Positions 7,898 through 31,931 of a DNA stretch of 37,597 nt are shown here, piece after piece (the first letter of the stretch is position 1; the number at the start of each line of letters is the position of its first letter). Both the position numbers and the translations under genes were made by a program. The notes beneath the pieces are model-generated. The model made no database searches and had not been told where the DNA came from. It saw only the letters and a list, made by a program, of their open reading frames with translations. Source of the DNA: a virus. The stretch is taken from positions 1 through 37,597 of IMG/VR virus record IMGVR_UViG_3300036846_000673; one strand, written 5' to 3'.

Positions 7898-9301
7898 TCA
7901 CCCAGTCTCGTCTTGAAACTTTTCGAAGAGCCCGCGCAGTTCAAGCGCCGGGCCTTGGCTACCGTCCGACATGATCGGCGTTGCGAGATAGGCGTCGCGG
8001 TCGATCTTCCACCCGCTGAGCTTCGCGGCGCGCTCGCCCTGCGGTCCGCGGTCGCCCTGCGCTCCGCGCTCGCCGCGCACGCCCGCGATGCCGCGCTGGC
8101 CCTGCCGCGTGAGCAATTGCCAGCCCTCGCCCGGGCACGGTCCCGGATCGTTGCGGCGCGCGATAAAGCTGCCCCCGTTGAGCGCGACAATGTCTAACGC
8201 GAAATAAGCCGTGTCGGCCTCGAAGGTGCCGCGCGGAATCGGCGTCGCCGCATCGCGCCCGCCGACGGCGAGGCATGCCCATTCATCTGAGTTGCCGGGC
8301 GGACGCCCGGTGTCGCGCAAAGCCTGATAGGTGCCGCCGAGATGAGTCACCACATCGCCAACGTAATGCACCCCGTCTTTCCACGCCTGGGCGATCTTGA
8401 GCTTGCCAACCGGCCCCTCGGCGCCCCGCTCGCCCGGCAGACCGCGCTCGCCCGCCGGACCAGCCTTGCCGATCTCGCCGCGCTCGCCACGCTCGCCACG
8501 CTCTCCCCGCGCTCCTGGGATGCCGCCTTCGCCGCGCGGGCCGATCGGACCGATGTCGCCACGTTCGCCCGATGCACCGGGTGCCCCAGGCAGCCCCCGC
8601 TCGCCACGTTCGCCCGCCGATCCGACGGCACCGGCCTCGCCGCGCGGACCGGCCTCTCCCGTGGCTCCGGAGGCTCCCGGCGCGCCCGTTTCGCCGGGCG
8701 GCCCAGAGGCGCCCGTCGGCCCAATCTCGCCCGCTGGCCCGCGCTCACCCGCCGGGCCGGCCTCTCCTGCCGCGCCGCGCTCGCCGACGGCGCCCGGGTC
8801 GCCAGGACCGCCCGGCGGACCGACAGGTCCGCGCTCGCCGACTGGCCCCGCCGGACCGACGGCACCGGGCTCGCCCTGCATCCCGCGCTCGCCAACCGGA
8901 CCCTGCTTGCCGATAGGACCCTCATCGCCGCGCACGCCCGGAAGTCCACGCAAACCTTGCTGACCTTGCAGCCCCGTCTCGCCGCGCTCGCCGATCGGAC
9001 CGGCTTCGCCGCGCGCGCCCGCCGGGCCGTCCGGACCGCGCGGACCGTCGGCGCCGTTGCGCACCAACGCCAACCGCGATTCCGTCTTGGTCGTCACCAT
9101 CTCGCGCAGCGTCAGCATCTCGGCGCGCATCTCCGCGATCGCCGCGCGCGCCTGGGCCGTGATCAGTTCGCGATCGCGGGCAGCCTGCTCGCGCTCAGTC
9201 TCAAGCAGTTCGCCGAGCGCCTCGCGCCAAGCATCAACTAACGCGTCGGCGGCGGTACCGGGAGGCGGCTGCCATGATGTGCTTGAGTTCTCTTCTAACA
9301 T
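7898..9301 (-). CDS. Collagen-like repeat protein with carbohydrate-binding-like modules
   Basis: A 467-residue protein starting at the ATG at 9301 (MLEENSSTSWQPPPGTAADA). Residues about 25-75 are a helical, Glu/Ala/Arg-rich segment (LGELLETEREQAARDRELIT) that could trimerise as a coiled coil. Residues 80-310 are about 75 uninterrupted Gly-X-Y triplets, mostly GERG, GPAG, GEAG and GAPG. Then follow two aromatic modules, AWKDGVHYVGDVVTHLGGTY and DTAYFALDIVALNGGSFIAR, each with the W/Y...G....GG.....R pattern of type-3 chitin-binding-like (CBM5/12-like) modules, separated by a second short collagen block. The whole resembles a fibrous virion appendage that contacts glycans. It sits between portal and connector, and its start overlaps the portal C-terminus by 68 bases in a different frame. 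The frame stays open upstream of 9301, but there it encodes Arg-rich shadow sequence. Confidence 0.85.
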   Translation of the reverse strand: MLEENSSTSWQPPPGTAADALVDAWREALGELLETEREQAARDRELITAQARAAIAEMRAEMLTLREMVTTKTESRLALVRNGADGPRGPDGPAGARGEAGPIGERGETGLQGQQGLRGLPGVRGDEGPIGKQGPVGERGMQGEPGAVGPAGPVGERGPVGPPGGPGDPGAVGERGAAGEAGPAGERGPAGEIGPTGASGPPGETGAPGASGATGEAGPRGEAGAVGSAGERGERGLPGAPGASGERGDIGPIGPRGEGGIPGARGERGERGERGEIGKAGPAGERGLPGERGAEGPVGKLKIAQAWKDGVHYVGDVVTHLGGTYQALRDTGRPPGNSDEWACLAVGGRDAATPIPRGTFEADTAYFALDIVALNGGSFIARRNDPGPCPGEGWQLLTRQGQRGIAGVRGERGAQGDRGPQGERAAKLSGWKIDRDAYLATPIMSDGSQGPALELRGLFEKFQDETG

Positions 9302-10694
9302 CTTCGCTGGCCTGTTTGGTTGGTACGGGTTCCGCTGGTGGCTTTTCGCCGGGCGGTGGCTTTTCCCCGGGCTTAGGCGCTGGCGGCGCGCCCGGCGGCG
9401 CGCCCGGTCCAGGCGACGCTGGCGCTGGAATCCCGGCCGCAGCGGATAAGGGCACGACCTGTTGTTGGACGCGCGGCTCGTCACCAAATTTAACTTTGTC
9501 GAGACCTTCGAGCGCGCGGGCTTCGTTTGGTGCGTAGATTCCGCCCTGCACGCCGCGCGCCAGCGCCTCGATTCTTTCCTTCTGCGCCGACCGCAACAGC
9601 GCCGCGGTATCGAATTCGCAATATTCTTCGGGCTGGCCCTTGAGCGCGAACAACACGCCAAATGCTTCCTCGATGTGATTGAGCGCAAAGCCCAGGCCGG
9701 TCGCGATCCAGAACTGCATCAGGGCTTCGGTCGATCCGAATGTTGTTCCGCCGAGGCCGAGGATTTGCATCGGGATGCGGAAGGCAAGCGCGATATGCTC
9801 TTCGGATAGCTTCATCATCTCGGCCAGCTGGGCGTCCTTGCCGCCGACCGACCAGGGCTGAACCTTCAGGCCAGCTGTGAGGATCGGCGTTCCGCCAGCG
9901 TTCAATGATCGTGACATCTCATTCCACCGATCACGGAGGCTCTGAACCTGATCTTTATCGAGCACAAGGTCTGTTGTCAGCACCGCGCTCGGCCGCGCTT
10001 GGTTGTTGTAGAAGTTCAATTGTTGCTGGCTGATGGCTTCGCTGACGCCAATGTCGTTGAGCGCCGCCAGCAACGGCGACTGCCCCCAAAGCGGGAATGG
10101 ATAGCGCCGGGTTCGATCGGCGTGCAACTTGATATGCAGCACGTCACGTTGCGGACCTATCAGCGGCTTCTCGTCGAGCCGCCGCGCGATGACTTGATTA
10201 CCATACAGCCGGTAAAACACCTCACCGTCGACGGAAAGCTGCGGGCGCGACAAGTACGAATCCATCAAATGCAATTCGTTGATCTCGTAGCGGTCATTGC
10301 GCAGCGCGAGGGCGTAGGCGTTGCCCTCAAGATATAACAGCCGCGTCGCGTTCAGCAGAAAGTCGGAGATGGATTGATAGTTGTTTGGAACGCGCAGGAC
10401 GCGCGCCAGCGCTGAATTCTTGACGCGTTCGCGGCCACCCTTGTCGTTCGTTCGCCAGTGGCCGCCGGGACACATCGCAACTGTCTGGCTGTAGGCCGAG
10501 ACGCACGCTTCTACCAGGGCCGAGCTTGTCGACCAAGGCTGGACGTTATTGCCGGTCTGCCACCAGTTCGTCGGCGACCCGTCCGGCAGCCAGCCGCCAG
10601 AGTATGGCAGATAGTAGGGGCCGGGCCGAGGGGCGCCCTCGACCGCGCGCAGCACACTTTGCCACGCGCGTGCTACAAGATCGCGAGCGCCCAT
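9234..10694 (-). CDS. Portal protein (HK97 gp3-like)
   Basis: A 486-residue protein starting at the ATG at 10694 (MGARDLVARAWQSVLRAVEG). It carries the layout of HK97-type portal proteins: LVEACVSAYSQTVAMCPGGH, then NATRLLYLEGNAYALALRND, then DVLHIKLHADRTRRYPFPLW (the 'H.....d...G.SPL' region), and ISQQQLNFYNNQARPSAVLT. This is followed by the wing and the crown-like Pro-rich C-terminus. Dodecamers of the portal form the vertex through which TerL pumps DNA. The C-terminal 60 residues are a Pro/Gly/Lys tail (PGPGAPPGAPPAPKPGEKPP). The gene starts 7 bases after the 95-residue gene. Portal lies downstream of the capsid gene here, whereas the common HK97 order is portal-protease-capsid. Confidence 0.9.
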   Translation of the reverse strand: MGARDLVARAWQSVLRAVEGAPRPGPYYLPYSGGWLPDGSPTNWWQTGNNVQPWSTSSALVEACVSAYSQTVAMCPGGHWRTNDKGGRERVKNSALARVLRVPNNYQSISDFLLNATRLLYLEGNAYALALRNDRYEINELHLMDSYLSRPQLSVDGEVFYRLYGNQVIARRLDEKPLIGPQRDVLHIKLHADRTRRYPFPLWGQSPLLAALNDIGVSEAISQQQLNFYNNQARPSAVLTTDLVLDKDQVQSLRDRWNEMSRSLNAGGTPILTAGLKVQPWSVGGKDAQLAEMMKLSEEHIALAFRIPMQILGLGGTTFGSTEALMQFWIATGLGFALNHIEEAFGVLFALKGQPEEYCEFDTAALLRSAQKERIEALARGVQGGIYAPNEARALEGLDKVKFGDEPRVQQQVVPLSAAAGIPAPASPGPGAPPGAPPAPKPGEKPPPGEKPPAEPVPTKQASEDVRRELKHIMAAASRYRRRRVS

Positions 10695-10701
10695 TTCACA
10701 T

Positions 10702-10989
10702 TCAGCCTGTCTTCGCGGGAGTGGCTTGCCGCGTCTGGTATGCAGTGCCAGCGGCCGGTTTCTTGGCCTCCAGCGCCTTGTTCGCAAGCACGCCTGGATC
10801 GAGGTCCGATCCGTCCGGCTCATGCTCGGCAAAGTGCGCGCCGAGCACCGCCAAGTCATTTTCTTCTTGAGTTGGCGTTGGCTTGCCCTTCACCCGTTCG
10901 AGGAATTCCTGCTTGGACTTCTCGCTCACCTTGCGATCTTCAGCAAGCTGCTTCTTCGCAGCTTCGTTTTCGGGAGGTTGGTCAGCCAT
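10702..10989 (-). CDS. Small charged protein between capsid and portal, unknown function
   Basis: A 95-residue, highly charged, hydrophilic protein with no membrane segment. The first half is helical (ENEAAKKQLAEDRKVSEKSK, then QEFLERVKGKPTPTQEENDL). The second half contains AVLGAHFAEHEPDGSDLDPG and ends in a basic tail. I do not recognise a family. The location between the major capsid and portal genes suggests a scaffold-like or head-completion role, as short charged helical proteins are often found there. It has AGGAG 6 bases upstream of its ATG at 10989, so it is well set up for translation. Its stop is 7 bases ahead of the portal start. Confidence 0.6.
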   Translation of the reverse strand: MADQPPENEAAKKQLAEDRKVSEKSKQEFLERVKGKPTPTQEENDLAVLGAHFAEHEPDGSDLDPGVLANKALEAKKPAAGTAYQTRQATPAKTG

Positions 10990-11118: not shown

Positions 11119-14100
11119 TTAGCTCCAAGTTGTTGCTTGAGTCCAAGCAATCGTTCCAGCGCGACGCTGAACCCAATTGAGCGGCATCACCATTCTTAGG
11201 GCGATGCTATCTGTTTGGAACAGCGAACGTTGCGGAGCAGCAACAACACCAGGCGACCCAGGACCAACCAAATCAAGCGGGTTCGTGTCTTCCATATGGA
11301 GCGTCGCCTGATCGCTCAATTCCAGACGTGGTGCTTCTCCGCCAACAACAACAAAATCGGCAGCATCGATCAAGATCATCGTATGCGGCGCGACCGTCAC
11401 CGAGTCGATGATCGGAATGGTGTTGAGCGTCCCATTCCTGATCTCATCGCGGAACGGGAAGATACCAGTGTTGGGCGCGGACGCCAGCGATGCAGAAAGA
11501 ATATCGCCGGGGTTCAGGAGCCACGTCGGCTCACGCAGATTGCCGAACGTGCTGGCCACGAGCGCCTGGGTCACCAGCTTTATATCGCCGATGAGCGCCG
11601 GAAGTCCGCCGCCCGCAGTCGGCGTGAGTCCAGCAACACCATTCAACAAACCGGGCGGCCGGATCACGGTCGCCGGATTGGCATCAAGCAAAACGGTGTC
11701 GATCGCGACGGCCGTATCGATCTGCACCGCCTCGCGCAACAGACCTTCGATCGCAGGGATGCTGTGATCATTCATCTCACGGGTCCAAACTGAGATGACC
11801 GCGACCTTCTTAGGCGTGAGCGTCTGTGACGCGAATGCGCCCTGCCGCACGGGGATCGCCATGCCCTCACCAACAAACGAACCGGCGATGGTAGGAGTTC
11901 GCTGGCGCGTCGGGATGATGATGCGCCCGGCGTTCCCAAAGTTGAGCGTCAGTCCTCTGGCAGCTAGCCGCCGCAGGATCGCCTTCGGGTAGAGTAGGTC
12001 CATAAAATCAGTGTAGATTTGTTGGACCAGTTCCGCCGCCCATCCGGTGACGGTGGTCATGGCCGGTGCGGACGCTGCGCGAAGCACGATTTCGCAGATT
12101 CCCTTGGTCGGCTCGTCGTCGCCGTAGATGCGCTGCCGGATTTCATCGGCTTGCCGTCCCGTCGTCTTGACGAAGTACGCCACGACTCCGGCGCGAATGA
12201 TGTAGTCCAAAGAGCTTAGCTCTTCGGCTTTCTTGCGGGCCGGCGGCAGAACGATGTCCTTCTCGCGATCGCGCCGGGACGAGATCGCCAACGTCAGCGC
12301 GCGGCTGCGCGTGCCGCCATTGTCGCCGCTGCCGTTGTCGGCCGTGCGGCCGAGCGCCTTCTCGGAGTCTTTCAGCACCGCGTGCTGCTTCTCAAGTTGC
12401 AGGATCGTCGCGTTGAGATCACTGCTCGTCTGAACGTCGGCGTCACTCACGTTCGAGTCGTCGATCTTATCCAAGTGCGCTTGGAGGGCGTCGCGCTTTT
12501 CAAGCAACGCTGCCTCGATGTCCGTAATTCTTTGAGCGAGCGGCGTCATGGCCGTGCCCTTTCCTTTCGAAGATGTGTCGGCGTGCTTGCCAGTGAGCCC
12601 GCGCTGAATGACCGCGTCTTTTTTGCCGTGCTTGGCGAAGACGATGTCGAGTGTTTGCGGGGAAACCTTTAGCGATTTGGCGATGGCCAGTGCGTTCGCA
12701 TTCGCCGGCACCGCCACCAGCGATGTTTCGATGAGTTCTTGCCGAATGAAGCGCATGCCTGCCCAGGCGCCATCGTCTGACTTGCGCATTTCGCTTTGCA
12801 AGTCTCGGAAGCCGACGCTCACGGCCCGGAGTACGCCCGCCTCGATCAGCTTTCTGATCTCGTCGATGCGAGGTGACGTGCCTTCGGGCGCCAGTTTCAG
12901 CTGGCCGCGCAGGCTGCGATCTTCGACCCGCAGGTTCTTCCACGTGCCGATCGGGAATCCCGGGTTGTGGTTGAACAGGGCGATGGGATTTTTCTGGAAC
13001 GAAACTGTATCCCACCCGTCTTGTTGGATCACATCCCCCATCCGATCGATGCTCTCATCGGACAGGATAAAGTCCATGCCGTGCACTTCTTCCGCGTGCG
13101 TCTTGCGCCGGACTGCGGCCTTGGCCGCGCGATTCTCCCACGCCATTTGACAGGCTTCGAGCGCGTCGTCGTCGTCGACGCTGGCATCGTTGTCGGTGAC
13201 CTGATCAACGCAGCGGTCGAGAAAATCGTCCTGGCCCTCATCGTCGTCCGGATCGGGAATGTCGTCCGGATCAACTTGCTTGCCGGTGTGGTGCGCGTCC
13301 CTCCACATCGTCATACAAGCGGCGACGGCTTGCTCTTGCGGGCGCTCGGTGCCGCCGCCCTGGCCCATTAGATCGGGCACACAGCGGGCCATCCAGTCCT
13401 CTTGCGTCTCTTCTTTTCCTGGCTTGATCGGCATGGCGTTGCCTTTCTCTTCGTTGCTGTCATCGCCGCTCTTGGGCGCTTCGCTCGCCGGCTTCTTACC
13501 GGCGCCGCCCGTCCACTTCTCAGCTTCGGCGATCAGCTTGGTTATCGAGATATCGACGCGGGCGACCTTGACGCTCTTGTCGTCGTGCAGATTGTTGTCC
13601 TTGGCGTCGACGCCCAGCTGTCCGGCCCAGGTGTGATGCCCGTCCAGAATGTAGTCGTCCCGCGAGACGACCAGCCTTTTGTAGAAGCCTTCTTTCTTGA
13701 TGCGCTTCATTGCGGCGGCGACTTTTTCTCCGCTGATCTCGTTCTGGGTCGCGCGCAGGTTGGCCGCGTATTCCTTGTCCTTCTCGACCTTATAACCTTC
13801 GCCCTTCAGATACTTGATGAAGGCCTTTGTTTGCTTGGCCGGAATCACCGGCATTTCGACGCGGGGGATTCCCTTGCTCTCGGCGCAGAACAGGTTGGTG
13901 CCTTCGACCGAGACGTTGCACAGATTGAACACGGGCGGCGTCTTGCCCGACGCTTCCATCTTGGCAGCGGTCTTGCCCAAGAGCTTGATCAGCGTCGAGA
14001 CTTGCTTTGGTTGGTGTAGCTCGACCTTGCGATTCTCGAACAGCGCCCGTTGCGCGTCGTAAACGCTTGGCGTGTGGATGACGCCGTCCTTGACGTAGGC

Positions 14101-14472
14101 GTCCTTCGAGTAGCCCTCGCCCGGGTGCCCGTCGGAGCCGTTGCCGCCGCCGTCGCCACCGCCGTCGGTCCACTTGCCGCTCTCGTCCCGGGGCTCGTCG
14201 GAGACATCGTGGCCACCGCCCGCGCGCAAGGTCGCAAGTCTGGCCAACGTTTGCTGGACTTGCTGCCGCAGCACGGTCCAGGCGGTCGCCTTTTCCTCGG
14301 GCGGCGCTGGCGGCGCGGGCGGCTTGCCCTTATGCGCCGCGCGATGCTTGGCGCGGATCGCCTCGCGGCGCGGGTCGCCCTCAAAGCGCTGCACCGGGCT
14401 CAGCCAGTGCGGCGACTTATCGTCGACCTCCATCTGCAAGATGTCGATCGGTATCCGTTTCGGTTCGGTCAT
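11119..14472 (-). CDS. ParB-like / prohead protease / major capsid fusion protein
   Basis: A 1117-residue reading frame from an ATG at 14472 that overlaps the previous stop as ATGA; an ATG at 14535 is possible but less likely. Domains in order: residues 70-110 hold the shared head tag (QQVQQTLARL, then VSDEPRDESGKWTDGGG). Residues 120-330 hold a module with VSRDDYILDGHHTWAG, the ParB-like 'DG.HR...A' signature. Residues 345-445 are acidic, with two Cys-containing repeats. Residues 463-600 are an HK97-family prohead protease (S78): GMDFILSDESIDRMGDVIQQ, catalytic-type His in LFNHNPGF and Ser in AVSVGFRD. From 642 there is a coiled-coil scaffold-like delta domain, then the HK97-fold capsid (IPVRQGAF, LFQTDSIALRMVMPLNW). 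In-frame ATGs with AG-rich upstream sequence occur at 13434 and 12549, so separate protease and capsid products may also be translated. Maturation would cut the fusion. Confidence 0.8.
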   Translation of the reverse strand: MTEPKRIPIDILQMEVDDKSPHWLSPVQRFEGDPRREAIRAKHRAAHKGKPPAPPAPPEEKATAWTVLRQQVQQTLARLATLRAGGGHDVSDEPRDESGKWTDGGGDGGGNGSDGHPGEGYSKDAYVKDGVIHTPSVYDAQRALFENRKVELHQPKQVSTLIKLLGKTAAKMEASGKTPPVFNLCNVSVEGTNLFCAESKGIPRVEMPVIPAKQTKAFIKYLKGEGYKVEKDKEYAANLRATQNEISGEKVAAAMKRIKKEGFYKRLVVSRDDYILDGHHTWAGQLGVDAKDNNLHDDKSVKVARVDISITKLIAEAEKWTGGAGKKPASEAPKSGDDSNEEKGNAMPIKPGKEETQEDWMARCVPDLMGQGGGTERPQEQAVAACMTMWRDAHHTGKQVDPDDIPDPDDDEGQDDFLDRCVDQVTDNDASVDDDDALEACQMAWENRAAKAAVRRKTHAEEVHGMDFILSDESIDRMGDVIQQDGWDTVSFQKNPIALFNHNPGFPIGTWKNLRVEDRSLRGQLKLAPEGTSPRIDEIRKLIEAGVLRAVSVGFRDLQSEMRKSDDGAWAGMRFIRQELIETSLVAVPANANALAIAKSLKVSPQTLDIVFAKHGKKDAVIQRGLTGKHADTSSKGKGTAMTPLAQRITDIEAALLEKRDALQAHLDKIDDSNVSDADVQTSSDLNATILQLEKQHAVLKDSEKALGRTADNGSGDNGGTRSRALTLAISSRRDREKDIVLPPARKKAEELSSLDYIIRAGVVAYFVKTTGRQADEIRQRIYGDDEPTKGICEIVLRAASAPAMTTVTGWAAELVQQIYTDFMDLLYPKAILRRLAARGLTLNFGNAGRIIIPTRQRTPTIAGSFVGEGMAIPVRQGAFASQTLTPKKVAVISVWTREMNDHSIPAIEGLLREAVQIDTAVAIDTVLLDANPATVIRPPGLLNGVAGLTPTAGGGLPALIGDIKLVTQALVASTFGNLREPTWLLNPGDILSASLASAPNTGIFPFRDEIRNGTLNTIPIIDSVTVAPHTMILIDAADFVVVGGEAPRLELSDQATLHMEDTNPLDLVGPGSPGVVAAPQRSLFQTDSIALRMVMPLNWVQRRAGTIAWTQATTWS

Positions 14473-16247
14473 GCGGCCAACGGGACTTCTTCGAATTCCG
14501 GCGCCTGTTTCGCCCAGGCGTCCCATCCTTTCCACGCGGTGCCAGCCACTACGACCTCTTGCTCGCTGTGGACGTTGATGCCGTAGGCAGGCACCGAGAC
14601 GGCGGCCGTGCGGGGAACCTGGGCGCGCAGCACGACGCGGTTCTTGTCTGCGCCCCAGCCGTTGGCGATGCTAGGCGATACGCTGGTCGAGGCGGCGCCG
14701 TTGCGCACCACGTCGAGCGTCGGCAAATGCTGGTACTTGCCGACCGTGCGGAGCAGTTGCGCCTTCATGTGCGTCATCGCCGCGCTGAATGTTTCCGGCG
14801 TCAATTTGATGCCGCGATAGACATCGAGAGTCTTGATGCCCGCCTTGTCGAGCAGGTATTGCGTCGTCTCCCACTTGGCGCGGACGTATTCCTTGACGCC
14901 ATCATAGCCGCCGACGTTGGCCCAATTGTTGGCGCGAGCGATCAGTTCGGCGCGGTCGATGTCGGTCGATGTCTTGGCGTTGAGCCGTCCGCCCAACTCA
15001 TCAGCGATGGCAACTTGCAACATCTTGCCGCCGTTCGAGGTTGATGAACCCTTCCAATCGCTCCACAAACGATTGTCCATGTCCTTAACCGCTCGCGTCA
15101 ATTCCGGCGTCACTTCACCCTTGAGCACGTTCTTGGCGATCAGCTGGGCGGCGCGCTCGATTGATAGTTGGCGCGCGAGCGCCTGCGTTCGCCTGTAATC
15201 CTCGCCGCTGGTCGCATTGAGCGGATCGAAGGTCTTGGGAAGCGCGACGACTCTCCCCTGCTCGACCGGCGTCTCTTCATTGATCAGTTCGGTGTTGCTC
15301 TTGGTCCACTCGAACTTGCTCTTGTCGGACATGCCGTCGTTCCAGTCGCTTTCCATCATTTCGGTCGCGCTGTCCTCGAAATAGTCGGGCGCATCTAGGC
15401 TATCGCTCTTATGGTCGGACTCCTTGTCGAACGCCTTCTCGATCGCCTTGCTCAACCCGTCGCGCATATCCTCGGTCAGCTGCTCTTCCGGCTTGAGCGG
15501 CTCAATGCCCGGCAGCGTTCCTTGTTCCGGCGGCGGCAGATTGCTCGGCTCCTGCAACTTTTCGTCGTCGAAGTTCACTTCGAACTTGCCTCCGCCGTCG
15601 TACCCATCCTGATAGGTCATCGAGATCGCCGCCATCAGCTGATCTTTGGTGTATGGAATGCGGCCGTCGAACTCGGCGATGAAACCATCGATGGCATCCG
15701 CGGCCCAATCTGTTTCCTTGTTCTCGTTGAAATCGTGGACGACGATTGACTTTGCCTCATCGAGCGCTTGGCCGCTCTCATACCAATTCTGCTTCTCGTT
15801 ATCGATGTAGTTTGACAGGCTTTGCTCTTTGTAGGCTTCGAAGGCGGCCTCTTGGTCAGCTTCGCTGACTTGGTCCCATTCCTCTGGGACGAAATCGCCG
15901 TCCTCATCATCATCAACCGAGCCGCCGCCGATCGTATGGCCGACCGCGTCCGATGCCATCTTGTCCAGCGTCGGCTTCGCGGTCTGGTATTCGCGTTCCA
16001 GCCGTTGCGCGGTGGCCTTGTTCCATTCGTCGCCGCCGACCGAGATCACATGCGGGTCGAGCGCGGGCTCGGCCGCGGGCTTCTCGGCGCCGCCGCCACC
16101 ACCGTCGCCGCCGCCCTCGGTCCATTTGCCCGACTCGTCGCGCGGCTCGTCGGAAACGTCGTGGCCGGCGCCGCGCAAGGCAAGTCGGGCCAGCGTTTGC
16201 TGGACTTGCGACCGCACAACCGCCCAGGACTCCGCCGTTGCTGGCAT
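14469..16247 (-). CDS. Head-tagged protein with a C-terminal ADP-ribosyltransferase domain
   Basis: A 592-residue acidic protein. The N-terminus repeats the tag of the capsid fusion (RSQVQQTLARLA, then DVSDEPRDESGKWTEGGG), the two encoding regions being similar even at the DNA level. Residues 60-330 are an acidic helical region rich in Asp/Glu. The C-terminal 220 residues carry the arrangement of R-S-E-class mono-ADP-ribosyltransferases: Arg in LDVYRGIKL (about 478), Ser-Thr-Ser in GAASTSVSP (about 520), and Glu-Gln-Glu in HSEQEVVV (about 562-564). An E-x-E end is typical of arginine-modifying enzymes. Such enzymes transfer ADP-ribose from NAD to host proteins, and phages are known to carry them (T4 Alt is packaged in the head). 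Packaging here is inferred from the tag and the operon. The gene ends ATGA-coupled to the capsid fusion. Confidence 0.72.
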   Translation of the reverse strand: MPATAESWAVVRSQVQQTLARLALRGAGHDVSDEPRDESGKWTEGGGDGGGGGAEKPAAEPALDPHVISVGGDEWNKATAQRLEREYQTAKPTLDKMASDAVGHTIGGGSVDDDEDGDFVPEEWDQVSEADQEAAFEAYKEQSLSNYIDNEKQNWYESGQALDEAKSIVVHDFNENKETDWAADAIDGFIAEFDGRIPYTKDQLMAAISMTYQDGYDGGGKFEVNFDDEKLQEPSNLPPPEQGTLPGIEPLKPEEQLTEDMRDGLSKAIEKAFDKESDHKSDSLDAPDYFEDSATEMMESDWNDGMSDKSKFEWTKSNTELINEETPVEQGRVVALPKTFDPLNATSGEDYRRTQALARQLSIERAAQLIAKNVLKGEVTPELTRAVKDMDNRLWSDWKGSSTSNGGKMLQVAIADELGGRLNAKTSTDIDRAELIARANNWANVGGYDGVKEYVRAKWETTQYLLDKAGIKTLDVYRGIKLTPETFSAAMTHMKAQLLRTVGKYQHLPTLDVVRNGAASTSVSPSIANGWGADKNRVVLRAQVPRTAAVSVPAYGINVHSEQEVVVAGTAWKGWDAWAKQAPEFEEVPLAA

Positions 16248-16251: not shown

Positions 16252-16545
16252 CTACATGCAGATGAGCGTGAGGGTGCGATCGGCTTCCTGCTCTATCGGC
16301 GATTCGGCCGAGCCCGATCTGACGGCTACGTAGGTGGCTGCTTGCGTGACCGCCGAGTCGACCATGATCGCGCAGCCGGGCTTTATGGCACCGTTTATGT
16401 TGTCGTCAGAAATCATGAAGCTGACATTGGCAGGCGTCCAATCAATGGGCGCCAGAATCAACAAGACCGATCTGGCCGAGAGATCGCCGGAACTCGATAG
16501 AGATTCCCCGGCCGGGATCGTGAGGTGGAGCGTTAGCTTAGGCAT
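16252..16545 (-). CDS. Small beta-rich head-associated protein, putative decoration protein
   Basis: A 97-residue protein starting MPKLTLHLTIPAGESLSSSG. Alternating hydrophobic strands and the blocks APIDWTPANVSFMISDDN and ATYVAVRSGSAESPIEQEA resemble a widespread small phage protein type with an 'I.aG.slS....' start, an 'dWTpA.vsF.iS.DG' block and a final 'lRSG....p..Q.a.R' block. These appear beside capsid genes and are believed to sit on the head surface, but a specific function is not established. It overlaps the stop of the TPR-glycosyltransferase by 8 bases and ends 4 bases before the ADP-ribosyltransferase protein begins, so all three are likely co-translated. Confidence 0.55.
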   Translation of the reverse strand: MPKLTLHLTIPAGESLSSSGDLSARSVLLILAPIDWTPANVSFMISDDNINGAIKPGCAIMVDSAVTQAATYVAVRSGSAESPIEQEADRTLTLICM

Positions 16546-17737
16546 CGGATGCCTCCAGCTGTGCGAGCGCGCTGTCCCAGTCGCCCGCGATGGTCTGGCG
16601 GCGGACGGTCACGTTGTCGTACCAGGGCGCGAGCCAGCGCCAGCTGGCATAGTGGCTCAGCAGCGCGTCGACGCGCGGATGGCCGATCGCGCCGGCAAGA
16701 TGCAGCGCGGCCGTGTCCACCGTCACGATGCGATCCATGGCCAGCATCAGGGCGGCGCAGTCGGCGAAAGTCTTGAGTTCGTGGAATTGGACGTGGTGTT
16801 CTAGCGCTTCGAGGCCGCCCTGCTTTTGCACGCTATGCAAATTTGCATTACCGAGCGCGCCGACCAGCTGACCGAGCGGAATCGCGCGCTGATAATCTTC
16901 CGGGCGCTGCACCGACGCCGACCACGCGATGCCGACGTGCCGTCCGGGGCCGAGTTGCTCGCGCGCGCGCGCGACCGCGGATGGCTCGATGTGAAGGTAA
17001 GGCCTGCCGCTGACGGTGTCCGGGCTGACGGATAGCATGCCGACGACATGCAGGAGCGGGCAGACGAAATCGCAATCGTCCAGGCCGTCGATCACGGGCG
17101 CGAACTGCGCCGCGAGCGCGGTCAGTTCTTCCGGCACCATCAGAACGACCTCGGCGCCGAGCGACCGGAGCAGCGGCACATAGCGCAGCACCATAATGGC
17201 GTCGCCAAATCCGTGCGTGTGCATCAGCAACAGCCGCTTGCCGGAAATGTCCTCGCCGTTCCACACCTTCAGGCCCGCATCGATGGCGTCGGCGATCCGC
17301 TCCCGCCTGAACGGTGGCCGCATCTCACATGCGCGGTATTCATCGAAGCCTTCGCGCCAGCGGCCGAGCGCCAGCAGGATCATCGCACGGTTGAAGCGGG
17401 CATAGAGCGTTGGCGCCTGCGCGATGACGGCGTCTATTTCGAGCAGCGCTTCGGTGTTCAGATTCTCGCGCGTGAGCGCCAGCGCGCGGTTGAAGCGCGC
17501 CACATAATCGTCGATGCGCAGCTGCTCGCGGATCGAGCGCGTGTGACGGCTGGCGTTCTTGCCGCGCATGATGGTCAGATCACCGTCATCCGGCATCGCG
17601 GCCTTGTGGCCATTGCGGCTGCGCACTTCGAGGATTTCACCCTTCGCCGTCAGCGCACGCCAGCCGTATTCCGTTTCCTCCTGCGCGATGATCGCCTCAC
17701 CATCGGGCAGCGGCTCGACGAAAGTGGACTCCTTCAT
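16538..17737 (-). CDS. TPR repeat protein with a GT9-like glycosyltransferase domain
   Basis: A 399-residue protein starting at the ATG at 17737, which overlaps the stop of the capsid paralogue as ATGA. Residues 76-140 look like tetratricopeptide repeats (ARFNRALALTRENLNTEALL, then YARFNRAMILLALGRWREGF). Residues 160-399 match the GT-B type, heptosyltransferase-like domain often joined to TPRs in bacteria: GKRLLLMHTHGFGDAIMVLR, then VGIAWSASVQRPEDYQRAIP, then the C-terminal DRIVTVDTAALHLAGAIGHP and a Trp-rich WRWLAPWYD block. In that family the first block is the acceptor-side glycine loop and the second half binds the sugar nucleotide. The substrate is unknown. Position inside the head operon suggests glycosylation of capsid, tail or host surface glycan. 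The frame is open upstream but as shadow sequence. Confidence 0.75.
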   Translation of the reverse strand: MKESTFVEPLPDGEAIIAQEETEYGWRALTAKGEILEVRSRNGHKAAMPDDGDLTIMRGKNASRHTRSIREQLRIDDYVARFNRALALTRENLNTEALLEIDAVIAQAPTLYARFNRAMILLALGRWREGFDEYRACEMRPPFRRERIADAIDAGLKVWNGEDISGKRLLLMHTHGFGDAIMVLRYVPLLRSLGAEVVLMVPEELTALAAQFAPVIDGLDDCDFVCPLLHVVGMLSVSPDTVSGRPYLHIEPSAVARAREQLGPGRHVGIAWSASVQRPEDYQRAIPLGQLVGALGNANLHSVQKQGGLEALEHHVQFHELKTFADCAALMLAMDRIVTVDTAALHLAGAIGHPRVDALLSHYASWRWLAPWYDNVTVRRQTIAGDWDSALAQLEASDA

Positions 17738-19716
17738 TTCCAACTCGGCGTCGTCCACGCGACCGCGCGCGGATCGCGGATCGCCCATGACAGGGGCCAC
17801 CGCATTTTCAGCGCGACGGAATCGGTCTGGAACAGGCTGCGCGCGGGCGAGGCCGGTGCACCACCGTTCACGATCGGCAGAGGCGTATCGTTCATATGCA
17901 ATTCGGCCGCCGTCGAAGCCTCGATCTCGGGCTGCGGGCTGATGGCGGCCACCAGCGCCAGCGGTGCCACGCACATGAGGTCGTTGCCCATGGCGTTGCT
18001 TGCGAGCACCGCGACGTTGCCCGCCTGGAGCACGAACCGCATGACCATGGCGGCGATGCGCCCAGGCGAGCCGATGAGCACGAAGGGGCCGTTGCCGCCG
18101 ACGACCGAGACGGCGTTGATGAGCGTGGCGCAGTCCTCGAAGAATGCCTGGAACGCGTCGGGCGACGCGCTCGGAGGCGTCGTCGCGACGCCGCTGCGCA
18201 AGCCAGCTGGCTGGGCAGCCGTCGCCGCCGCGGAACCGAAGAGCGCCACGTCGAGCGCCGCCGAGGCTGCCCGCATGAGCGTGTCGCCGACCAACACTTC
18301 GGCGTTGGACGATTCGATCATCTCGCGGCTCAGCACGCCGATGGCGCCAAGTTTGTACGGCTGCATGAGCGCCGCCGTCGCCGCCAGCTGGCGCACTGGA
18401 ATCGGTGCGCCCTCGGCAACGAAGCCAGCGTTGGCGGCGCCCGCCACGAAGCCGGGCGCGCTGATCAGGCCGTTGCCGTCGAACATCAGGACGAGAGATT
18501 GCATGAGCAAACGCGCGCCCGCCGCCGATGGACCCATGCCCTCAAGCCCGTCATACACAACCTTGTGGGCAAGCTCGGCGGCCCATCCCGCGACGGTCGT
18601 CATGGCCGGTGCCGAAACCGAGCGGGTAAGCAGCTGCGCCAGCACCTTGTCTGATGGCCAGAGATTCCCAGCGACATCGAGCGCCGGGCGCCGCGTGGCG
18701 CTCGCGATGGCGCGCGCGGTGAGCAGGCGCAGGAACAGATTCCCGCCGGGCAACGGCGGCGGCTCGCGATCGCGGCGCGCTTCTGCGCGGGCGCGAAACG
18801 GCTCGACCAGAGCGTTCATGTGATTCGGCTCCCGTGTTAAAGTTTTCTCAGCTTGCATCCGCACCGCTGCCCAGGCCTTCGAGCGGGCGAGCTTTTCGAG
18901 CGCAGCCGTCTGCGCGGCCACGCCCGCGTCGTACGTCGCAATGCGCTCGCCATCGCCCGGCTTGTAGGCCGCCGCGTGTTCTGGGTCGTGGACCATAAAG
19001 ACAACGTCCGGCCGGCCGTTGTTATACAAGCCGTATCTTTCATAATCCCAGTCCGGCGGCGCGTATTCATCATTGAATGGAAGGCGCGCGACCGCGCGAA
19101 ATCCGTTCTCAGCGTAGAGCTTTGGTAGGACCGTATCGAACGCGTCGAGCTTATTGCCGCCAGCTTGGACCGCCATCGCCAGCGCCGAGTCCGCAAAGCG
19201 GCTGGCGCTGGAATCCGGATGTTTGAATACCGAAACGATGTCGCCATCGCTCTTGACCGAGACGCCGGCTTTGCCGTCCGGAGTCGTGAAGGTCCGCATA
19301 CCCGCGTAATCAGCGGCCGGATAGGTCGCCACGGCGGCGCCGAAATTGCCGGCCGTCTTCGCGGCCACTATCGCGTCGTGGAAACGCTGGCCGCCGCCAG
19401 CGGTCTGTTTCAGTTCGTGAAATGTAACTGGTGTGGAACGGGGTAACGCCGTGCGGCCGGCATCGTTTAGATCGTAGACGCCAGCTACATCCCGGCTTCC
19501 CTCAAGTCCCGTAGGGCTACGTCGATCGTAAGCTTGGGATGCTGTTCCAGAACTCCCTGGAGTAGCGCCCGATCCCACTCCGGAAGGTTTTTCGCCTCCG
19601 GATGGTTCGCGATCGCCGCCGCTATCTCCGCCGTCCGTCCATCTGCCTGCGTCATCTCGTGGCTCGTCTGGGTCAAATCCCCGGGCGTATATAGGCGCTC
19701 CGCTGCGGCCTGTCAC
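17734..19716 (-). CDS. Second capsid-like (HK97-fold) protein with N-terminal head tag and GNAT-like domain
   Basis: A 660-residue protein with a GTG start at 19716. Residues 14-30 are the shared tag (FDPDEPRDDAGRWTDGG), followed by a Gly/Ser/Pro linker. Residues 90-260 form a folded-looking domain that ends LPKLYAENGFRAVARLPFN, the 'LY...GF..VAR' element seen in GNAT N-acetyltransferase-like domains; this is a tentative assignment. Residues about 330-660 parallel the major capsid of the neighbouring fusion: SAPAMTTVAGWAAELAHKV, GFVAEGAPIPVRQL and the identical RSLFQTDS near the end, then the 'ALKM..PLsW' strand. The protein lacks the long coiled-coil delta domain and the protease. It is best read as a minor or decorating capsid paralogue. 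The stop overlaps the next ATG as ATGA. Confidence 0.75.
   Translation of the reverse strand: MTGRSGAPIYARGFDPDEPRDDAGRWTDGGDSGGDREPSGGEKPSGVGSGATPGSSGTASQAYDRRSPTGLEGSRDVAGVYDLNDAGRTALPRSTPVTFHELKQTAGGGQRFHDAIVAAKTAGNFGAAVATYPAADYAGMRTFTTPDGKAGVSVKSDGDIVSVFKHPDSSASRFADSALAMAVQAGGNKLDAFDTVLPKLYAENGFRAVARLPFNDEYAPPDWDYERYGLYNNGRPDVVFMVHDPEHAAAYKPGDGERIATYDAGVAAQTAALEKLARSKAWAAVRMQAEKTLTREPNHMNALVEPFRARAEARRDREPPPLPGGNLFLRLLTARAIASATRRPALDVAGNLWPSDKVLAQLLTRSVSAPAMTTVAGWAAELAHKVVYDGLEGMGPSAAGARLLMQSLVLMFDGNGLISAPGFVAGAANAGFVAEGAPIPVRQLAATAALMQPYKLGAIGVLSREMIESSNAEVLVGDTLMRAASAALDVALFGSAAATAAQPAGLRSGVATTPPSASPDAFQAFFEDCATLINAVSVVGGNGPFVLIGSPGRIAAMVMRFVLQAGNVAVLASNAMGNDLMCVAPLALVAAISPQPEIEASTAAELHMNDTPLPIVNGGAPASPARSLFQTDSVALKMRWPLSWAIRDPRAVAWTTPSWK
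19485..19676 (-). CDS. Possible overprinted small gene inside the capsid-paralogue linker
   Basis: A 63-residue frame from a TTG at 19676 (TQTSHEMTQADGRTAEIAAA) to a TAG at 19485, read in a different frame over the Gly/Ser/Pro linker of the larger gene. The predicted protein is helical with an ordered-looking end (LPEWDRALLQGVLEQHPKLT, then IDVALRDLREAGM). Third codon positions in this frame are visibly richer in G/C than in the larger frame over the same bases, which is the coding pattern elsewhere in the operon. However, the overlapping frame carries the conserved tag, so both cannot be freely optimised. It may be a dual-coding region, or the small frame may be the relic of an older gene. 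Confidence 0.3.
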   Translation of the reverse strand: MTQTSHEMTQADGRTAEIAAAIANHPEAKNLPEWDRALLQGVLEQHPKLTIDVALRDLREAGM

Positions 19717-20001: not shown

Positions 20002-21669
20002 TCACGCGATCAACGTATCCAGATCGATCGGCTTGGCGGTTCGATCCCGCGCGCGAAGTCCGAGCATCATGGCGAGCGCGACCGCGCCGTCGATCCTGAA
20101 CCTCGCTTTGTCCTTGTCGATTTTCCGATTCCCGGCTGGGTCCATCGTGGCCACCGCATTTGCCAGATTCCAATTGAGAACGGGGCTGGAGGGGTGGATG
20201 ATCGTGCGCTCGGTGATGGCAAGTTCGAGCGCATCGATAGCAGGCCCCATATCCTTGTATCCCTGACCCCACGGCAAAATTCGCAAGCCATCTCCGCCTT
20301 TCTCCCCTTCTTTGTATGCTTGGAGTCCGATCCTATCAAACTCTCTCAGCAACTCATCGACGCGCCAGCGATCATAAGCGAGGCCGCGAATTTTCTGCAT
20401 CTGGCCAAGTTGCGCGATGAACGTCGCGATCACGGCCGGATCGATCGAGCGGCCTGGGGTGGTCATCAGATGACCGCTGGCGAGCCATTCCTGATAACGA
20501 TGGCTCCCGCTTCCGAAGTCGCGCACCGAATGTTCCGCCAACAGTTCGCGCGGCTTCCAAAAGAAAGCGCGGATGCGGGTCGGATCGTTGACGGTGCCCA
20601 TAACGAGCGCCGTGAGATCGACCACGCTTGAGAGATCGAGGCCCAGGTAAACCTCTTCGCCTTCCTCAATGCTGACCGAGCCAGCGCACGCCATCCATTC
20701 AGCACGAGAGATCAGCGACGCCGTCGGCGAGACTCGCTGATTGAGAAATAAGTTCCTGACCTTCGGCTCTTCGGCCGGCATGCGCTTGGCCTTGCGCACG
20801 GCGGTGACGAGGTCATCGCGGTCGCGCCACTTGCCGAGCGCAGGGTTGGCCTTCAACCACTGCGCCTCGTCTTCGAGATCGCATTCCTCGTCCGCGGCGT
20901 GCAGATGGCAGACGATCGCCGGATCGTTCTTCGAGAGGCCGTCATCGATGAGCTTGGACAGAATATGCTCTGGATCGTTCGACTGCGTGCTGATGACCAC
21001 GAAGAGTGGTTCGCTGCGCGCACCAAATGAAGTGTCCAGCACGTCGTAGAGATCGCGGCTCTTGGCCTGCGCCAACTCATCGTAGATCGCTACGCTCGGC
21101 AGATAGCCGTGCTTCGTTCCGGCTTCGGCCGAGACTGCGCGAAAGATCGAGCCCGTCGGGTGCGCAATCATGGTCTTGGTCGAGCCAATGATTTCGATCT
21201 GGGGTCGCAGGATCGGCTCGCGCTCGACGATCTGCTTCGCGAACTTGAAGATGATGGACGCCTGATCGCGATCGTTCGCGGCGCTGTAGATTTCCCCGTT
21301 CTGGATCGCCTCGGGGCCGATCAGATGCGCGAGCACGATGGCCGCGATGATCGCTGACTTGCCGTTCTTGCGCGCTACTGACAGGATCGCGCGGCGCACG
21401 ATGCGACGCTTGCCGCGATGAGGCTCGTAAATGTCGCGGATAAAGTCTTTTTCCCATTCGTCGAGAGTGAACAGGCGCCCTTCGCCGATGCCGCTCGGAA
21501 TCGTCAGCGCTTCGATAAACTTGATGACCTCGCGGGCGCGCTTGCGCCCGTATGCGGAGCGCTTAACCGCCGCCGAGGAGTCCCGTGAACTTGTTGGCCT
21601 TCGTGCTGGCGATAGGCCCGGTGGCAATTCGCGCTCTGGCGCTTGGGGTAAGTCCGAATTCGGTGGCAT
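20002..21669 (-). CDS. terL: Terminase large subunit (TerL)
   Basis: A 555-residue protein of the HK97/P27-associated Terminase_1 type. The ATPase half has the Walker A segment SVARKNGKSAII (about 97-108) and Walker B PSVAIYDELA (about 191-200), with VVISTQSNDPEHI following as the coupling motif region. The nuclease half shows the acidic clusters YLGLDLSSVVDLTAL, GLAYDRWRVDELL and RIDGAVALAMMLG. TerL docks on the portal, pumps DNA into the prohead and cuts the concatemer. The annotated ATG at 21669 overlaps TerS by 107 bases, which is long; the first 35 residues are low in family features, so translation might begin later at a non-ATG codon. The stop is followed by the double-hairpin repeats. 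Confidence 0.93.
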   Translation of the reverse strand: MPPNSDLPQAPERELPPGLSPARRPTSSRDSSAAVKRSAYGRKRAREVIKFIEALTIPSGIGEGRLFTLDEWEKDFIRDIYEPHRGKRRIVRRAILSVARKNGKSAIIAAIVLAHLIGPEAIQNGEIYSAANDRDQASIIFKFAKQIVEREPILRPQIEIIGSTKTMIAHPTGSIFRAVSAEAGTKHGYLPSVAIYDELAQAKSRDLYDVLDTSFGARSEPLFVVISTQSNDPEHILSKLIDDGLSKNDPAIVCHLHAADEECDLEDEAQWLKANPALGKWRDRDDLVTAVRKAKRMPAEEPKVRNLFLNQRVSPTASLISRAEWMACAGSVSIEEGEEVYLGLDLSSVVDLTALVMGTVNDPTRIRAFFWKPRELLAEHSVRDFGSGSHRYQEWLASGHLMTTPGRSIDPAVIATFIAQLGQMQKIRGLAYDRWRVDELLREFDRIGLQAYKEGEKGGDGLRILPWGQGYKDMGPAIDALELAITERTIIHPSSPVLNWNLANAVATMDPAGNRKIDKDKARFRIDGAVALAMMLGLRARDRTAKPIDLDTLIA

Positions 21670-23501: not shown

Positions 23502-24524
23502 ATGTCCAACATTCTTGAACAGTGCGTCACGATCGCGGAAGCGGTCAATCTTCTAAACATGCTGATCGACGGCGACGATCCGGTCATGCTTTGGGGACCG
23601 CCCGGCATCGGCAAGTCGGAAGCGACCCACCAAGTCGGCGCCGAGCGCGGCTGGAAGGTCATCGAATATCGAGCCAACATCCGAGAGCCCGTCGACGTGC
23701 GAGGCATCCCGGTGCCGGACCTAGTCAAGGGCACGACGCGCTGGCTCATCCCTGACGAGTTGCCGAACGCGGAGCGCGACGGCGAGCGAGGCATCTTGTT
23801 CCTCGACGAGATCAACACGGCGAGCCCGCAGATGATGGCCGTGCTTTTCGGCCTCGTCCTCGAACGGCGAGTCGGCGAGTACACGTTGCCCGAAGGCTGG
23901 GTCATCGTCGCCGCCGGCAACCGCGTCTCGGATCGAGCCGCCGCGCAGCGGATGCCGACCGCGTTGCGAAACCGGTTCGCGCACTTGTTCATCACGCCTG
24001 ACGTTGACGCGTGGTGCACCTGGGCGAACCGCAACAACGTCGCGCCAGAGGTTGTCGCGTTCGTGCGGCTGCGACGTGAGCTAATCCACGTCATGCCGAA
24101 AGGCGACGAGAATTCGTTCCCCACTCCGCGGTCACTCACGAAGGCTGCGAAGTATGTGAACGCCCCGAAGGCGCAGCGCCTCCGGTTATTCGCGGCTCAC
24201 ATCGGCGACGCGCCTGCGGCCGAGCTTGATGGCTTCATCGAGCTATACCGCAATCTGGGCTCGCTCGACGACATCATTGCGAGCCCGGACACCGCAACGC
24301 TGCCGACCGACGCCTCTGGCCGGTACGCGGTCTGCACCGGCTTGGGCCGAATGGCGAACCGGAAGACGCTTCCGAATATCATCAAATACGCGAAGCGACT
24401 GCCGCGAGAGAGTCAGGTGCTGGTCGTCCACGATGCGACATCGCGAGACGAGAAGCTCAAGGAAACGACGGCCTACGGAAAGTGGGCCGTCGAAAATCAG
24501 GACATCATCTTACAGATGTCGTGA
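23502..24524 (+). CDS. MoxR-type AAA+ ATPase
   Basis: A 340-residue P-loop ATPase. Walker A is WGPPGIGKSEAT (31-42) and Walker B ILFLDEIN (98-105). A sensor-1-like segment VIVAAGNR and the following PTALRNRFAHLF (arginine finger region) complete the AAA+ core. The GPPGIGKS loop followed by YRANIREPVDVRGIPVPD is the pattern of MoxR-family members, which work with VWA-domain proteins as chaperone-like or metal-insertion (chelatase) machines. CobS-like ATPases are also in this wider group and occur in phages. Genes at 24616 and 25647 supply the DUF3150-like and zincin/VWA partners, so these three probably form one complex. The C-terminal domain is helical (LPNIIKYAKRLPRESQVLVV). Confidence 0.88.
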   Translation: MSNILEQCVTIAEAVNLLNMLIDGDDPVMLWGPPGIGKSEATHQVGAERGWKVIEYRANIREPVDVRGIPVPDLVKGTTRWLIPDELPNAERDGERGILFLDEINTASPQMMAVLFGLVLERRVGEYTLPEGWVIVAAGNRVSDRAAAQRMPTALRNRFAHLFITPDVDAWCTWANRNNVAPEVVAFVRLRRELIHVMPKGDENSFPTPRSLTKAAKYVNAPKAQRLRLFAAHIGDAPAAELDGFIELYRNLGSLDDIIASPDTATLPTDASGRYAVCTGLGRMANRKTLPNIIKYAKRLPRESQVLVVHDATSRDEKLKETTAYGKWAVENQDIILQMS

Positions 24525-24532
24525 TCGCTACC

Positions 24533-24615
24533 GGGCGGCGCACCGTGCGCCGCCCCATAGTGATCATGCGATCACCGGCCACTGCAAGGCCGTCAATCAA
24601 ACAATGGAGTCACCA
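24533..24615 (+). promoter_or_regulatory. Triple-hairpin leader with CTGCAA loop (DUF3150-like gene)
   Basis: Three stem-loops in a row: GGGCGGCGCA/TGCGCCGCCC (24533-24555), GTGATC/GATCAC (24560-24575), and CGGCC-ACTGCAA-GGCCG (24576-24592). They are followed by an A-rich linker and GGAGTCAC before the ATG at 24616. The first could act as a weak attenuator; there is no T run after it. Confidence 0.75.
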
Positions 24616-25506
24616 ATGCTTACCAAGACAAACATCGCCACCCAGCTCGCCCGTAAGGCCGTGCTGGTGTCGGTCAACATCTCACAGTGGACGGCGCGTA
24701 AGCTCGACAAGCGGGTCACTGACGAAGTCAACCGCGAGCACGGCGCTGCGGCCAATGCTGGACGCTACAATAAGCTGCTCGTCGAGGCCGAGCGGTTGGC
24801 CAAGATCACCTCGCTGGTCTCGGCCGCGCGGGCGCTGCACTACGGGATGACGCGACCATGGGCCGATGAAGGTCCGCGAATTCTGCCCAACGCGCTGTTC
24901 GTCAAATTCTCGGACGAATTCCGAAAGATGAAGCGCGAGTTCGAGCAGGCCGCAGACGAATTCGCGGCCGGCTATCCGAGTTTCATTGAAGAGCGAAAGG
25001 CCGCGTTGAATGGGCTGTTCAACGAGTCGGACTATCCGGACGTGTCGGACATCCGGAGCAAGTTCAAGCTCGAAATGACGATCTTACCGTTTCCGGACGC
25101 CGACGATTTCCGGAGCAACCTTGATGAAGACACGGTCGCCGACATCAAGGCCGAGATCGCCGAAACGTCGTCACGTGTGATCGATGACGCAATGCGCCAC
25201 ACCGCCAAGCAGATCATTGATCTGGTTGGCCACATGGGCACCAAGTTGAAAGAGTACAAAACTAACGGCGACGGCAAGCGAAAGTTCTTTCTCAACTCGC
25301 TTGTGGATAACGTGCGCGACCTCGCCGAACTATTGCCAGCCTTCAATCTCACCGAAGACCCGAAGCTCACTCAGATCATCGCGCGTATCCAAAAGGAATT
25401 GTGCACCGAGGACGCGGGCGAGCTTCGTAAGAACGATGCCGCTAGAGAGTCGGTGCAGAAATCAGCCGACGAAATCGTAGCCGCGGTGTCGCAGTTTCTC
25501 GCGTGA
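24616..25506 (+). CDS. DUF3150-like phage protein, partner of the MoxR/VWA pair
   Basis: A 296-residue, mainly helical protein beginning MLTKTNIATQLARKAVLVSV and NISQWTARKLDKRVTDEVNR. The latter is the 'l..S.W..rK.D..vt..v' start of DUF3150 proteins, known in phages next to AAA+ ATPase genes. The middle has a conserved-looking LPNALFVKFSDEFRKMKREF, and the C-terminal half is coiled coil. No catalytic motif is seen. The start at 24616 follows GGAGTCAC. The stop is 140 bases before the zincin/VWA gene. Probably an adaptor or substrate of the ATPase-VWA module; this is inferred from order only. Confidence 0.65.
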   Translation: MLTKTNIATQLARKAVLVSVNISQWTARKLDKRVTDEVNREHGAAANAGRYNKLLVEAERLAKITSLVSAARALHYGMTRPWADEGPRILPNALFVKFSDEFRKMKREFEQAADEFAAGYPSFIEERKAALNGLFNESDYPDVSDIRSKFKLEMTILPFPDADDFRSNLDEDTVADIKAEIAETSSRVIDDAMRHTAKQIIDLVGHMGTKLKEYKTNGDGKRKFFLNSLVDNVRDLAELLPAFNLTEDPKLTQIIARIQKELCTEDAGELRKNDAARESVQKSADEIVAAVSQFLA

Positions 25507-25646
25507 TCGAATTGCGGTCGCCAGTCATCGAGTGCCCAGCAAAGGGCCAAGGCCGCGTTGCGACCGCAAAGGGACCGGGCTTCGGCCCGGTCCCGCCTTC
25601 CCTTCTTGCCGCTGCAAACGGCATCAATCAAACAAGGAGTCACCCA
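25507..25646 (+). promoter_or_regulatory. Structured leader of the zincin/VWA gene with CTGCAAA hairpin
   Basis: An intergenic region of 140 bases with three possible structures: TTGCGGTCGC (25512-25521) pairing with GCGACCGCAA (25560-25569); a 10-bp stem with a TTCG tetraloop, GGGACCGGGC/GCCCGGTCCC (25571-25594); and GCCG-CTGCAAA-CGGC (25608-25622). An A-rich linker and GGAGTCAC then precede the ATG at 25647. Confidence 0.65.
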
Positions 25647-31917: not shown

Positions 31918-31931
31918 CAGGAGTCACGAGA

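What the first reader, a model, noticed from the sequence alone, without database searches (positions are those of the whole stretch)
14469..16247. Putative mono-ADP-ribosyltransferase encoded between decoration and capsid genes
The C-terminal 220 residues show the R-S-E order expected of arginine-type ADP-ribosyltransferases: Arg in VYRGI, Ser-Thr-Ser, and Glu-x-Glu in SEQEVVV, all at plausible spacing (about 478, 520-522, 562-564). The rest is an acidic helical region of unknown role.
Basis: partly seen in the sequence, partly recalled or inferred. Interest (0 to 1): 0.75.

Follow-up and report, generated by a model that had tools for sequence, protein, structure and literature searches.

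The report
Phage head-gene ADP-ribosyltransferase with partner
This phage gene looks like an enzyme that tags proteins with ADP-ribose, probably carried in the phage head, and it is almost always followed by the same tiny partner protein, which may hold it in check or help load it.

Summary
The ORF is real: 592 aa, under purifying selection, with 63 related IMG/VR loci. In the relatives checked, Arg478 and Glu-x-Glu (562/564) are present in 47 of 47 and the Ser motif in 40 of 47. The isolated domain (335-592) is modelled well (pTM 0.86). All 50 listed solved-structure matches belong, to my knowledge, to the ADP-ribosyltransferase (ART) superfamily, though scores are modest (Z up to 6.0). A DRAT profile aligns all three motifs in register. 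Pfam, PHROGs and NCBIfam do not recognise the protein.

Relatives are fused to phage portals or to Acb1, NUDIX, GNAT-like and ParB-like domains, or sit among head genes. A head-borne, injected effector like T4 Alt is the best reading; injection was not tested.

New here: a ~55-aa partner module follows the ART directly in 56 of 60 loci, usually overlapping by 4 bp. Searching with the module alone found 34 contigs, all with the ART upstream, 6 of them new. In the window it is fused to the N-terminus of the protease-capsid polyprotein. I propose that it inhibits or loads the ART. ART proteins also tend to end in Ala-Ala (31 of 47, against 13 of 438 other ORFs).

The parts
14469..16247 (-). ART effector gene, 592 aa (stop codon 14469-14471)
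16074..16235 (-). N-terminal leader, residues 5-58: predicted helix plus DEPRDESGKWTxGG motif, near-identical to a stretch of the protease-capsid polyprotein
   Evidence: 76% identity, E 1.9e-21 to 14122-14289; helix 8-25 (low pLDDT there); motif recurs at module borders in relatives
15246..16067 (-). Conserved acidic, mainly helical domain, residues 61-334; separable module
   Evidence: found without an ART in L071 and L072
14472..15245 (-). ART catalytic domain, residues 335-592
14814..14816 (-). Arg478, predicted NAD-binding Arg on strand 473-481
14682..14690 (-). Ser520-Thr-Ser motif on strand 518-522
14556..14564 (-). Glu562-x-Glu564 at the start of strand 564-568
14472..14477 (-). C-terminal Ala-Ala, enriched in the ART family
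14290..14472 (-). Partner module (IDILxMExxxxxPHWLSP...AIRxKHR); its ATG overlaps the ART stop by 4 bp; here it is the N-terminus of the capsid polyprotein
11119..14472 (-). Polyprotein of 1117 aa: partner module, leader/tag, ParB-like domain, S78 prohead protease, HK97-type capsid
14122..14289 (-). Second copy of the leader/tag, inside the polyprotein
17734..19716 (-). Second capsid-like protein with a third tag copy (19579-19683) and a phrog_2563 (here called GNAT-like) segment that recurs as a fused module in relatives

Best explanation
The gene encodes an arginine-type mono-ADP-ribosyltransferase effector made with the phage head proteins, most likely packaged in the head and injected with the DNA to modify a host protein early in infection, in the way T4 Alt works. 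Its parts are a leader/tag shared with the capsid polyprotein, a helical module of unknown role and a C-terminal ART domain. It is translated together with a dedicated ~55-aa partner. The most likely role of the partner is to bind the ART and keep it inactive in the producing cell; where it is fused to the capsid precursor it could also draw the ART into the prohead. Shown: motifs, predicted fold, head-gene context, portal fusions in relatives, partner linkage. Inferred: catalysis, arginine as acceptor, packaging, injection, inhibition.
For: Motifs conserved 47/47, 40/47 and 47/47. Domain model pLDDT 86.3, pTM 0.86. All 50 listed rows of the structure comparison are, to my knowledge, ART superfamily members (or anthrax lethal factor, whose domain is ART-like, recalled); best Z 6.0 over 166 residues. 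With the full-length model rows 1-24 are all ARTs, 22 of them aligned within 331-590. DRAT profile match score 33.7 with YRG, S-x-S and ExE in register; none of 200 column shuffles reached it (maximum 28.4). The ART sits in the same ORF as a portal domain in L015, L023, L024 (identical L026-L028), L034 and L044 by Pfam and in L021 by tblastn. 41 of 63 loci hold a terminase, portal or capsid match to my queries; in three of the other 22 the ART lies just downstream of a Mu-type portal (L042) or a DUF4055 protein (L047, L064). Other fused domains include Acb1, NUDIX, ART-PolyVal and an oxidoreductase. Leader shared with the capsid polyprotein. Partner in 56 of 60 loci and ART upstream in 34 of 34 contigs found by the partner alone.
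Against: No experiment. Structure scores are modest: Foldseek found no solved structure at E<=0.001 and Z stays under 8. No member reaches a Pfam ART cut-off (the best is L034 with DRAT, 16.4 bits against 25). Seven divergent relatives lack the usual Ser motif. No virion proteomics: head packaging is inferred from fusions and neighbours. In two relatives (L040, L044) the partner lies in the same ORF as the ART, which is awkward for a simple antitoxin.
Confidence: 0.66

Rival explanations
1. A prophage toxin-immunity pair: the ART kills or arrests competing or superinfected cells, and the downstream small protein is its immunity protein, as for the MuF-ART Bxa with its structural immunity protein Bsi.
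For: Strict, translationally coupled toxin-then-small-ORF order; occurrence in Bradyrhizobium genomes; direct precedent in PMC11699363 (abstract and passages).
Against: No MuF domain was seen in the ORFs scanned; the partner is often fused to other proteins, including the capsid polyprotein, and keeps a conserved core across the family, unlike most immunity proteins (general knowledge); fused Acb1 and NUDIX domains point to counter-defence.
Confidence: 0.3
2. The small partner is not an inhibitor but a structural tether, or a split-off piece of the ART domain that completes or activates the enzyme.
For: Adjacent to the ART wherever found, sometimes in the same ORF (L040, L044) or fused to head proteins; conserved core.
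Against: The isolated ART domain is modelled confidently without it.
Confidence: 0.3
3. The ART acts late in the producing cell, like T4 ModA/ModB, and is not injected.
For: Encoded among late head genes; nothing here measures delivery.
Against: Fusion to portals in several relatives and the leader shared with the capsid polyprotein point into the particle.
Confidence: 0.15
4. A catalytically dead ART fold used as a structural head protein.
For: Head-gene location; modest fold scores.
Against: Arg and ExE present in 47 of 47 relatives; dN/dS 0.11-0.24.
Confidence: 0.06

Closest known systems
T4 Alt and other head-packaged phage ARTs (R-S-E clade, Alt/VIP2 family; PMC9503650, PMC5512222)
   Same: R-S-E catalytic pattern, gene among head and packaging genes, predicted delivery with DNA
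   Different: No sequence family match; here the shared leader, the helical module and the ~55-aa partner are extra
Dinitrogenase reductase ADP-ribosyltransferase, DRAT (PF07357)
   Same: YRG, S-x-S and ExE in register; the preceding helix also aligns
   Different: Below the Pfam cut-off; DRAT is a cellular regulator of nitrogenase (recalled), with no phage head context
Bxa/Bsi: MuF-ART toxin with structural immunity protein (PMC11699363)
   Same: Phage head region, ART toxin with a small neighbouring ORF
   Different: No MuF domain seen here; partner often fused to capsid or other proteins; no sequence comparison with Bxa or Bsi was made
Polyvalent proteins of phages (PMC5512222)
   Same: In relatives the ART is fused to portal, ParB-like, GNAT-like, Acb1 and NUDIX domains
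   Different: In the window the ART stands as its own gene with one unknown helical domain

Membership tests
ART superfamily, R-S-E clade | Arg on first core strand | tested here: met
   47 of 47; strand 473-481
ART superfamily, R-S-E clade | Ser-x-Ser/Thr motif | tested here: met
   In the window protein and 40 of 47 relatives; 7 lack it
ART superfamily, R-S-E clade | ExE motif | tested here: met
   47 of 47
ART superfamily, R-S-E clade | ART fold | tested here: met
   By prediction only: best Z 6.0, all listed rows ART superfamily to my knowledge; Foldseek alone not significant
ART superfamily, R-S-E clade | NAD-dependent ADP-ribosyl transfer | not testable with these tools
   needs an assay
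DRAT (PF07357) | Match over the Pfam gathering score | tested here: not met
   1 of 30 members matches at all; L034 16.4 bits against 25
MuF polymorphic toxins | N-terminal MuF domain | tested here: not met
   No MuF Pfam hit in the window ART or the scanned fusions
Polyvalent proteins | Several unlike effector domains in one polypeptide | tested here: inconclusive
   True of many relatives; the window protein has one recognised activity
Head-packaged, injected effectors (Alt-like) | Presence in virion and injection | not testable with these tools
   only portal fusions and gene context

The most novel reading that the evidence does not exclude
The partner module is an ART inhibitor that doubles as a loading adaptor. 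Fused to the N-terminus of the protease-capsid precursor, it would hold the ART inactive, carry it into the prohead as cargo, and release it when the prohead protease matures the capsid, while unpackaged ART is removed through its C-terminal Ala-Ala acting as a degron. The capsid precursor itself would then be the antitoxin.
Probability: 0.22. Interest if true: 0.85.

Novelty: new variant of a known kind. Interest (0 to 1): 0.62.

Why it matters
Head-packaged ARTs are a known phage strategy, but this family and its partner are absent from the family libraries searched (ART: Pfam, PHROGs, NCBIfam; partner: PHROGs, NCBIfam). The near-strict ART-partner pairing, with the partner free or joined to capsid, ART or other proteins, gives a concrete, testable case of how a phage might make a harmful enzyme safely and load it into particles. 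The Bradyrhizobium copies give a source in sequenced bacteria.

Tried and rejected
No match: Pfam, PHROGs and NCBIfam for the window protein (chance-level matches only for the family, except one sub-threshold DRAT hit); tblastn against 50,697 phage records with three family members; phmmer and profile search of PDB sequences, chance-level hits only. DRAT in the presumed host genus: 0 of 31 Bradyrhizobium genomes, but no control genome rang either, so absence is not shown. A first shuffle control used the wrong hhalign option (the true match scored 1.6 there) and was replaced by local mode, which reproduces the protein comparison score.

Artefact checks. Ala-Ala ends as a by-product of the ATGA overlap: rejected, since non-ART ORFs with that overlap end in AA in 2 of 89 and others in 12 of 398, against ART 16 of 23 and 15 of 24. 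ART C-termini are related sequences, so these counts are not independent. The leader/tag as an ART-only signal: rejected, since it recurs up to four times in one protein and precedes other modules; 1 of the 29 other tagged ORFs listed ends in AA. I considered a programmed frameshift joining ART and partner; the stop-start overlap explains the sequence and no slippery site was sought.

The partner alignment as a whole gave no searchable stretch, so two subsets were used. 66 and 65 stretches matched the patterns and 24 and 25 were confirmed; unconfirmed ones were not examined. Partner missing by profile in L025, L031, L055, L063; L055 and L063 were found by the seed profile, but were in its seed. 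Distribution: A1 matched 4 of 265 Bradyrhizobium genomes (2 full ART, 2 helical domain only); A2 matched 1 of 296 genomes of the family and 1 of 398 of the phylum, the same genome.

Full report
The window is one whole IMG/VR virus record of 37,597 bases with a contractile tail sheath gene at 3120-4925. On the minus strand the order is terminase large subunit (20002-21669), a capsid-like protein (17734-19716), an ORF with a weak glycosyltransferase-9 match (16538-17974), a 97-aa ORF, the finding, a protease-capsid polyprotein and the portal (9234-10859).

The observation. The ORF is as reported. A scan of viral contigs gave 63 related loci. In a 36-row alignment R478, S520, E562 and E564 are invariant. 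Counting every distinct relative that reaches this part, the Arg motif is in 47 of 47, ExE in 47 of 47 and the usual Ser motif in 40 of 47 (six distinct fragments or interrupted copies without the anchor helix were left out of the count: L018, L050, L059, L061, L065, L066). dN/dS is 0.11-0.24 for the ART and 0.10 and 0.31 for the partner (one further comparison there, of the helical part with a fragment that does not contain it, gave 0.88, is meaningless and was dropped).

The fold. Full-length model: mean pLDDT 81.4, pTM 0.58. The domain 335-592 alone: 86.3 and 0.86. Foldseek finds nothing significant among solved structures, but the structural aligner's 50 listed rows for the domain are all, to my knowledge, ART superfamily folds (Listeria ART effector, Vis with NAD, VIP2, C2-I, C3, ExoS, KptA, Scabin and so on, plus anthrax lethal factor), best Z 6.0 over 166 residues. 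Z below 8 can be a common arrangement, so the fold rests on the unanimity of the rows plus the motifs. Four predicted viral proteins match the full-length model at E below 1e-5, one of them named as a phage head morphogenesis protein. Independently, one relative, L034, has a sub-threshold Pfam match to DRAT. Three DRAT proteins found by profile in genomes of the same class as the Bradyrhizobium genome G001 align to the family with the preceding helix, YRG, S-x-S and ExE in register, score 33.7; 200 column-shuffled profiles reached at most 28.4 and the reversed one 17.2. ExE, rather than QxE, suggests arginine as acceptor (general knowledge of the family).

Context and delivery. In five distinct relatives Pfam finds a portal domain in the same ORF as the ART (L015, L023, L024, L034, L044), and tblastn finds one in L021. 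Other fused domains are Acb1 anti-CBASS (L038, L040), NUDIX (L031), ART-PolyVal (L048) and ParB-like and GNAT-like modules. 41 of 63 loci hold a terminase, portal or capsid match to my queries (my count); in three of the remaining 22 the ART follows a Mu-type portal or a DUF4055 protein directly (DUF4055 as portal-like is recalled). Prior work argues that such fusions and neighbourhoods mark head-packaged, injected ARTs (PMC9503650, sections 3.3.1 and 3.7.1 and passages; PMC5512222, passages). Residues 5-58 are 76% identical to a stretch of the capsid polyprotein, and the DEPRDxxGKW motif recurs at module borders, four times in L044. A linker, a processing site or a targeting signal would all fit; I could not separate them. 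The helical domain also occurs without an ART in two Bradyrhizobium genomes, so it is a module of its own.

The partner. Directly after the ART stop, mostly with a 4-bp overlap, begins a ~55-aa module with the core IDILxMExxxxLP[HY]WLxP...IRxKxR. With a profile it is found in 56 of the 60 loci in which the ART end is held (not deduplicated, a few loci are identical copies); the other three of the 63 are truncated. In the loci it was not found elsewhere. Two scans with the module alone returned 34 distinct contigs (my count); all have the ART directly upstream, including six contigs that the ART scan had not returned. In 265 Bradyrhizobium genomes strong partner matches occur only in the two with the full ART; the two with only the helical domain have none, and one further genome has a weak partial match. 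The partner is standalone (52-73 aa) in about 23 distinct loci, N-terminal to a larger protein in about 21 including the window (1117 aa), part of a 116-228-aa ORF in a divergent subgroup, and in the ART ORF itself in L040 and L044 (categories by my reading of its rows). No family match of note. The nearest functional precedent is Bxa, a phage head-region ART whose small neighbour Bsi binds and blocks it (PMC11699363, abstract and passages); MuF toxin genes are also mostly followed by a small ORF (PMC5576092, passages). I therefore favour an inhibitor, possibly also an adaptor when fused to the capsid precursor, over a tether or a split enzyme piece. This is inference.

The C-terminus. ART proteins end in Ala-Ala in 31 of 47 distinct closed C-termini, other ORFs in 13 of 438; overlap with the next start codon does not explain it. 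Ala-Ala ends are recognised by Clp proteases (recalled), so a degron that limits free ART is a reasonable guess.

Novelty. The searches of print (listings) gave the general concept and the Bxa precedent but not this family or partner. The class is known; the family, its partner and the partner's fusion to a capsid precursor appear new.

Noticed in passing
17734-19716 and 11119-14472 (-): Two capsid-like paralogues in one phage, each with an N-terminal extension carrying the DEPRDxxG[KR]W tag and a module (phrog_2563 segment or ParB-like domain) that recurs as a fused effector-type module in relatives.
   Followed up: partly
L044, L050, L009, L029 and others: The motif (D/E)xPRDxxG(K/R)W followed by a Gly-rich stretch repeats at borders of fused modules, up to four times in one protein; it may be a processing or targeting site.
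   Followed up: partly
23502-27086 (+): MoxR-type AAA ATPase, DUF3150-like protein and DUF2201 metallopeptidase/VWA protein in a row.
   Followed up: no
7898-9688 (-): Collagen-repeat tail fibre with a weak CBM5/12 match.
   Followed up: no
16538-17974 (-): ORF with a sub-threshold glycosyltransferase family 9 match between the capsid-like gene and the ART.
   Followed up: no
31500-32279 (+): Protein with an integron-cassette domain VCH_CASS (PF18315, E 3.3e-26).
   Followed up: no
L064:3349-5793: Intein splicing domain in an 815-aa ORF upstream of the DUF4055 protein.
   Followed up: no
L048:3391-7920: A second, Pfam-recognised ART (ART-PolyVal) fused N-terminal to this ART in the same ORF.
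   Followed up: no
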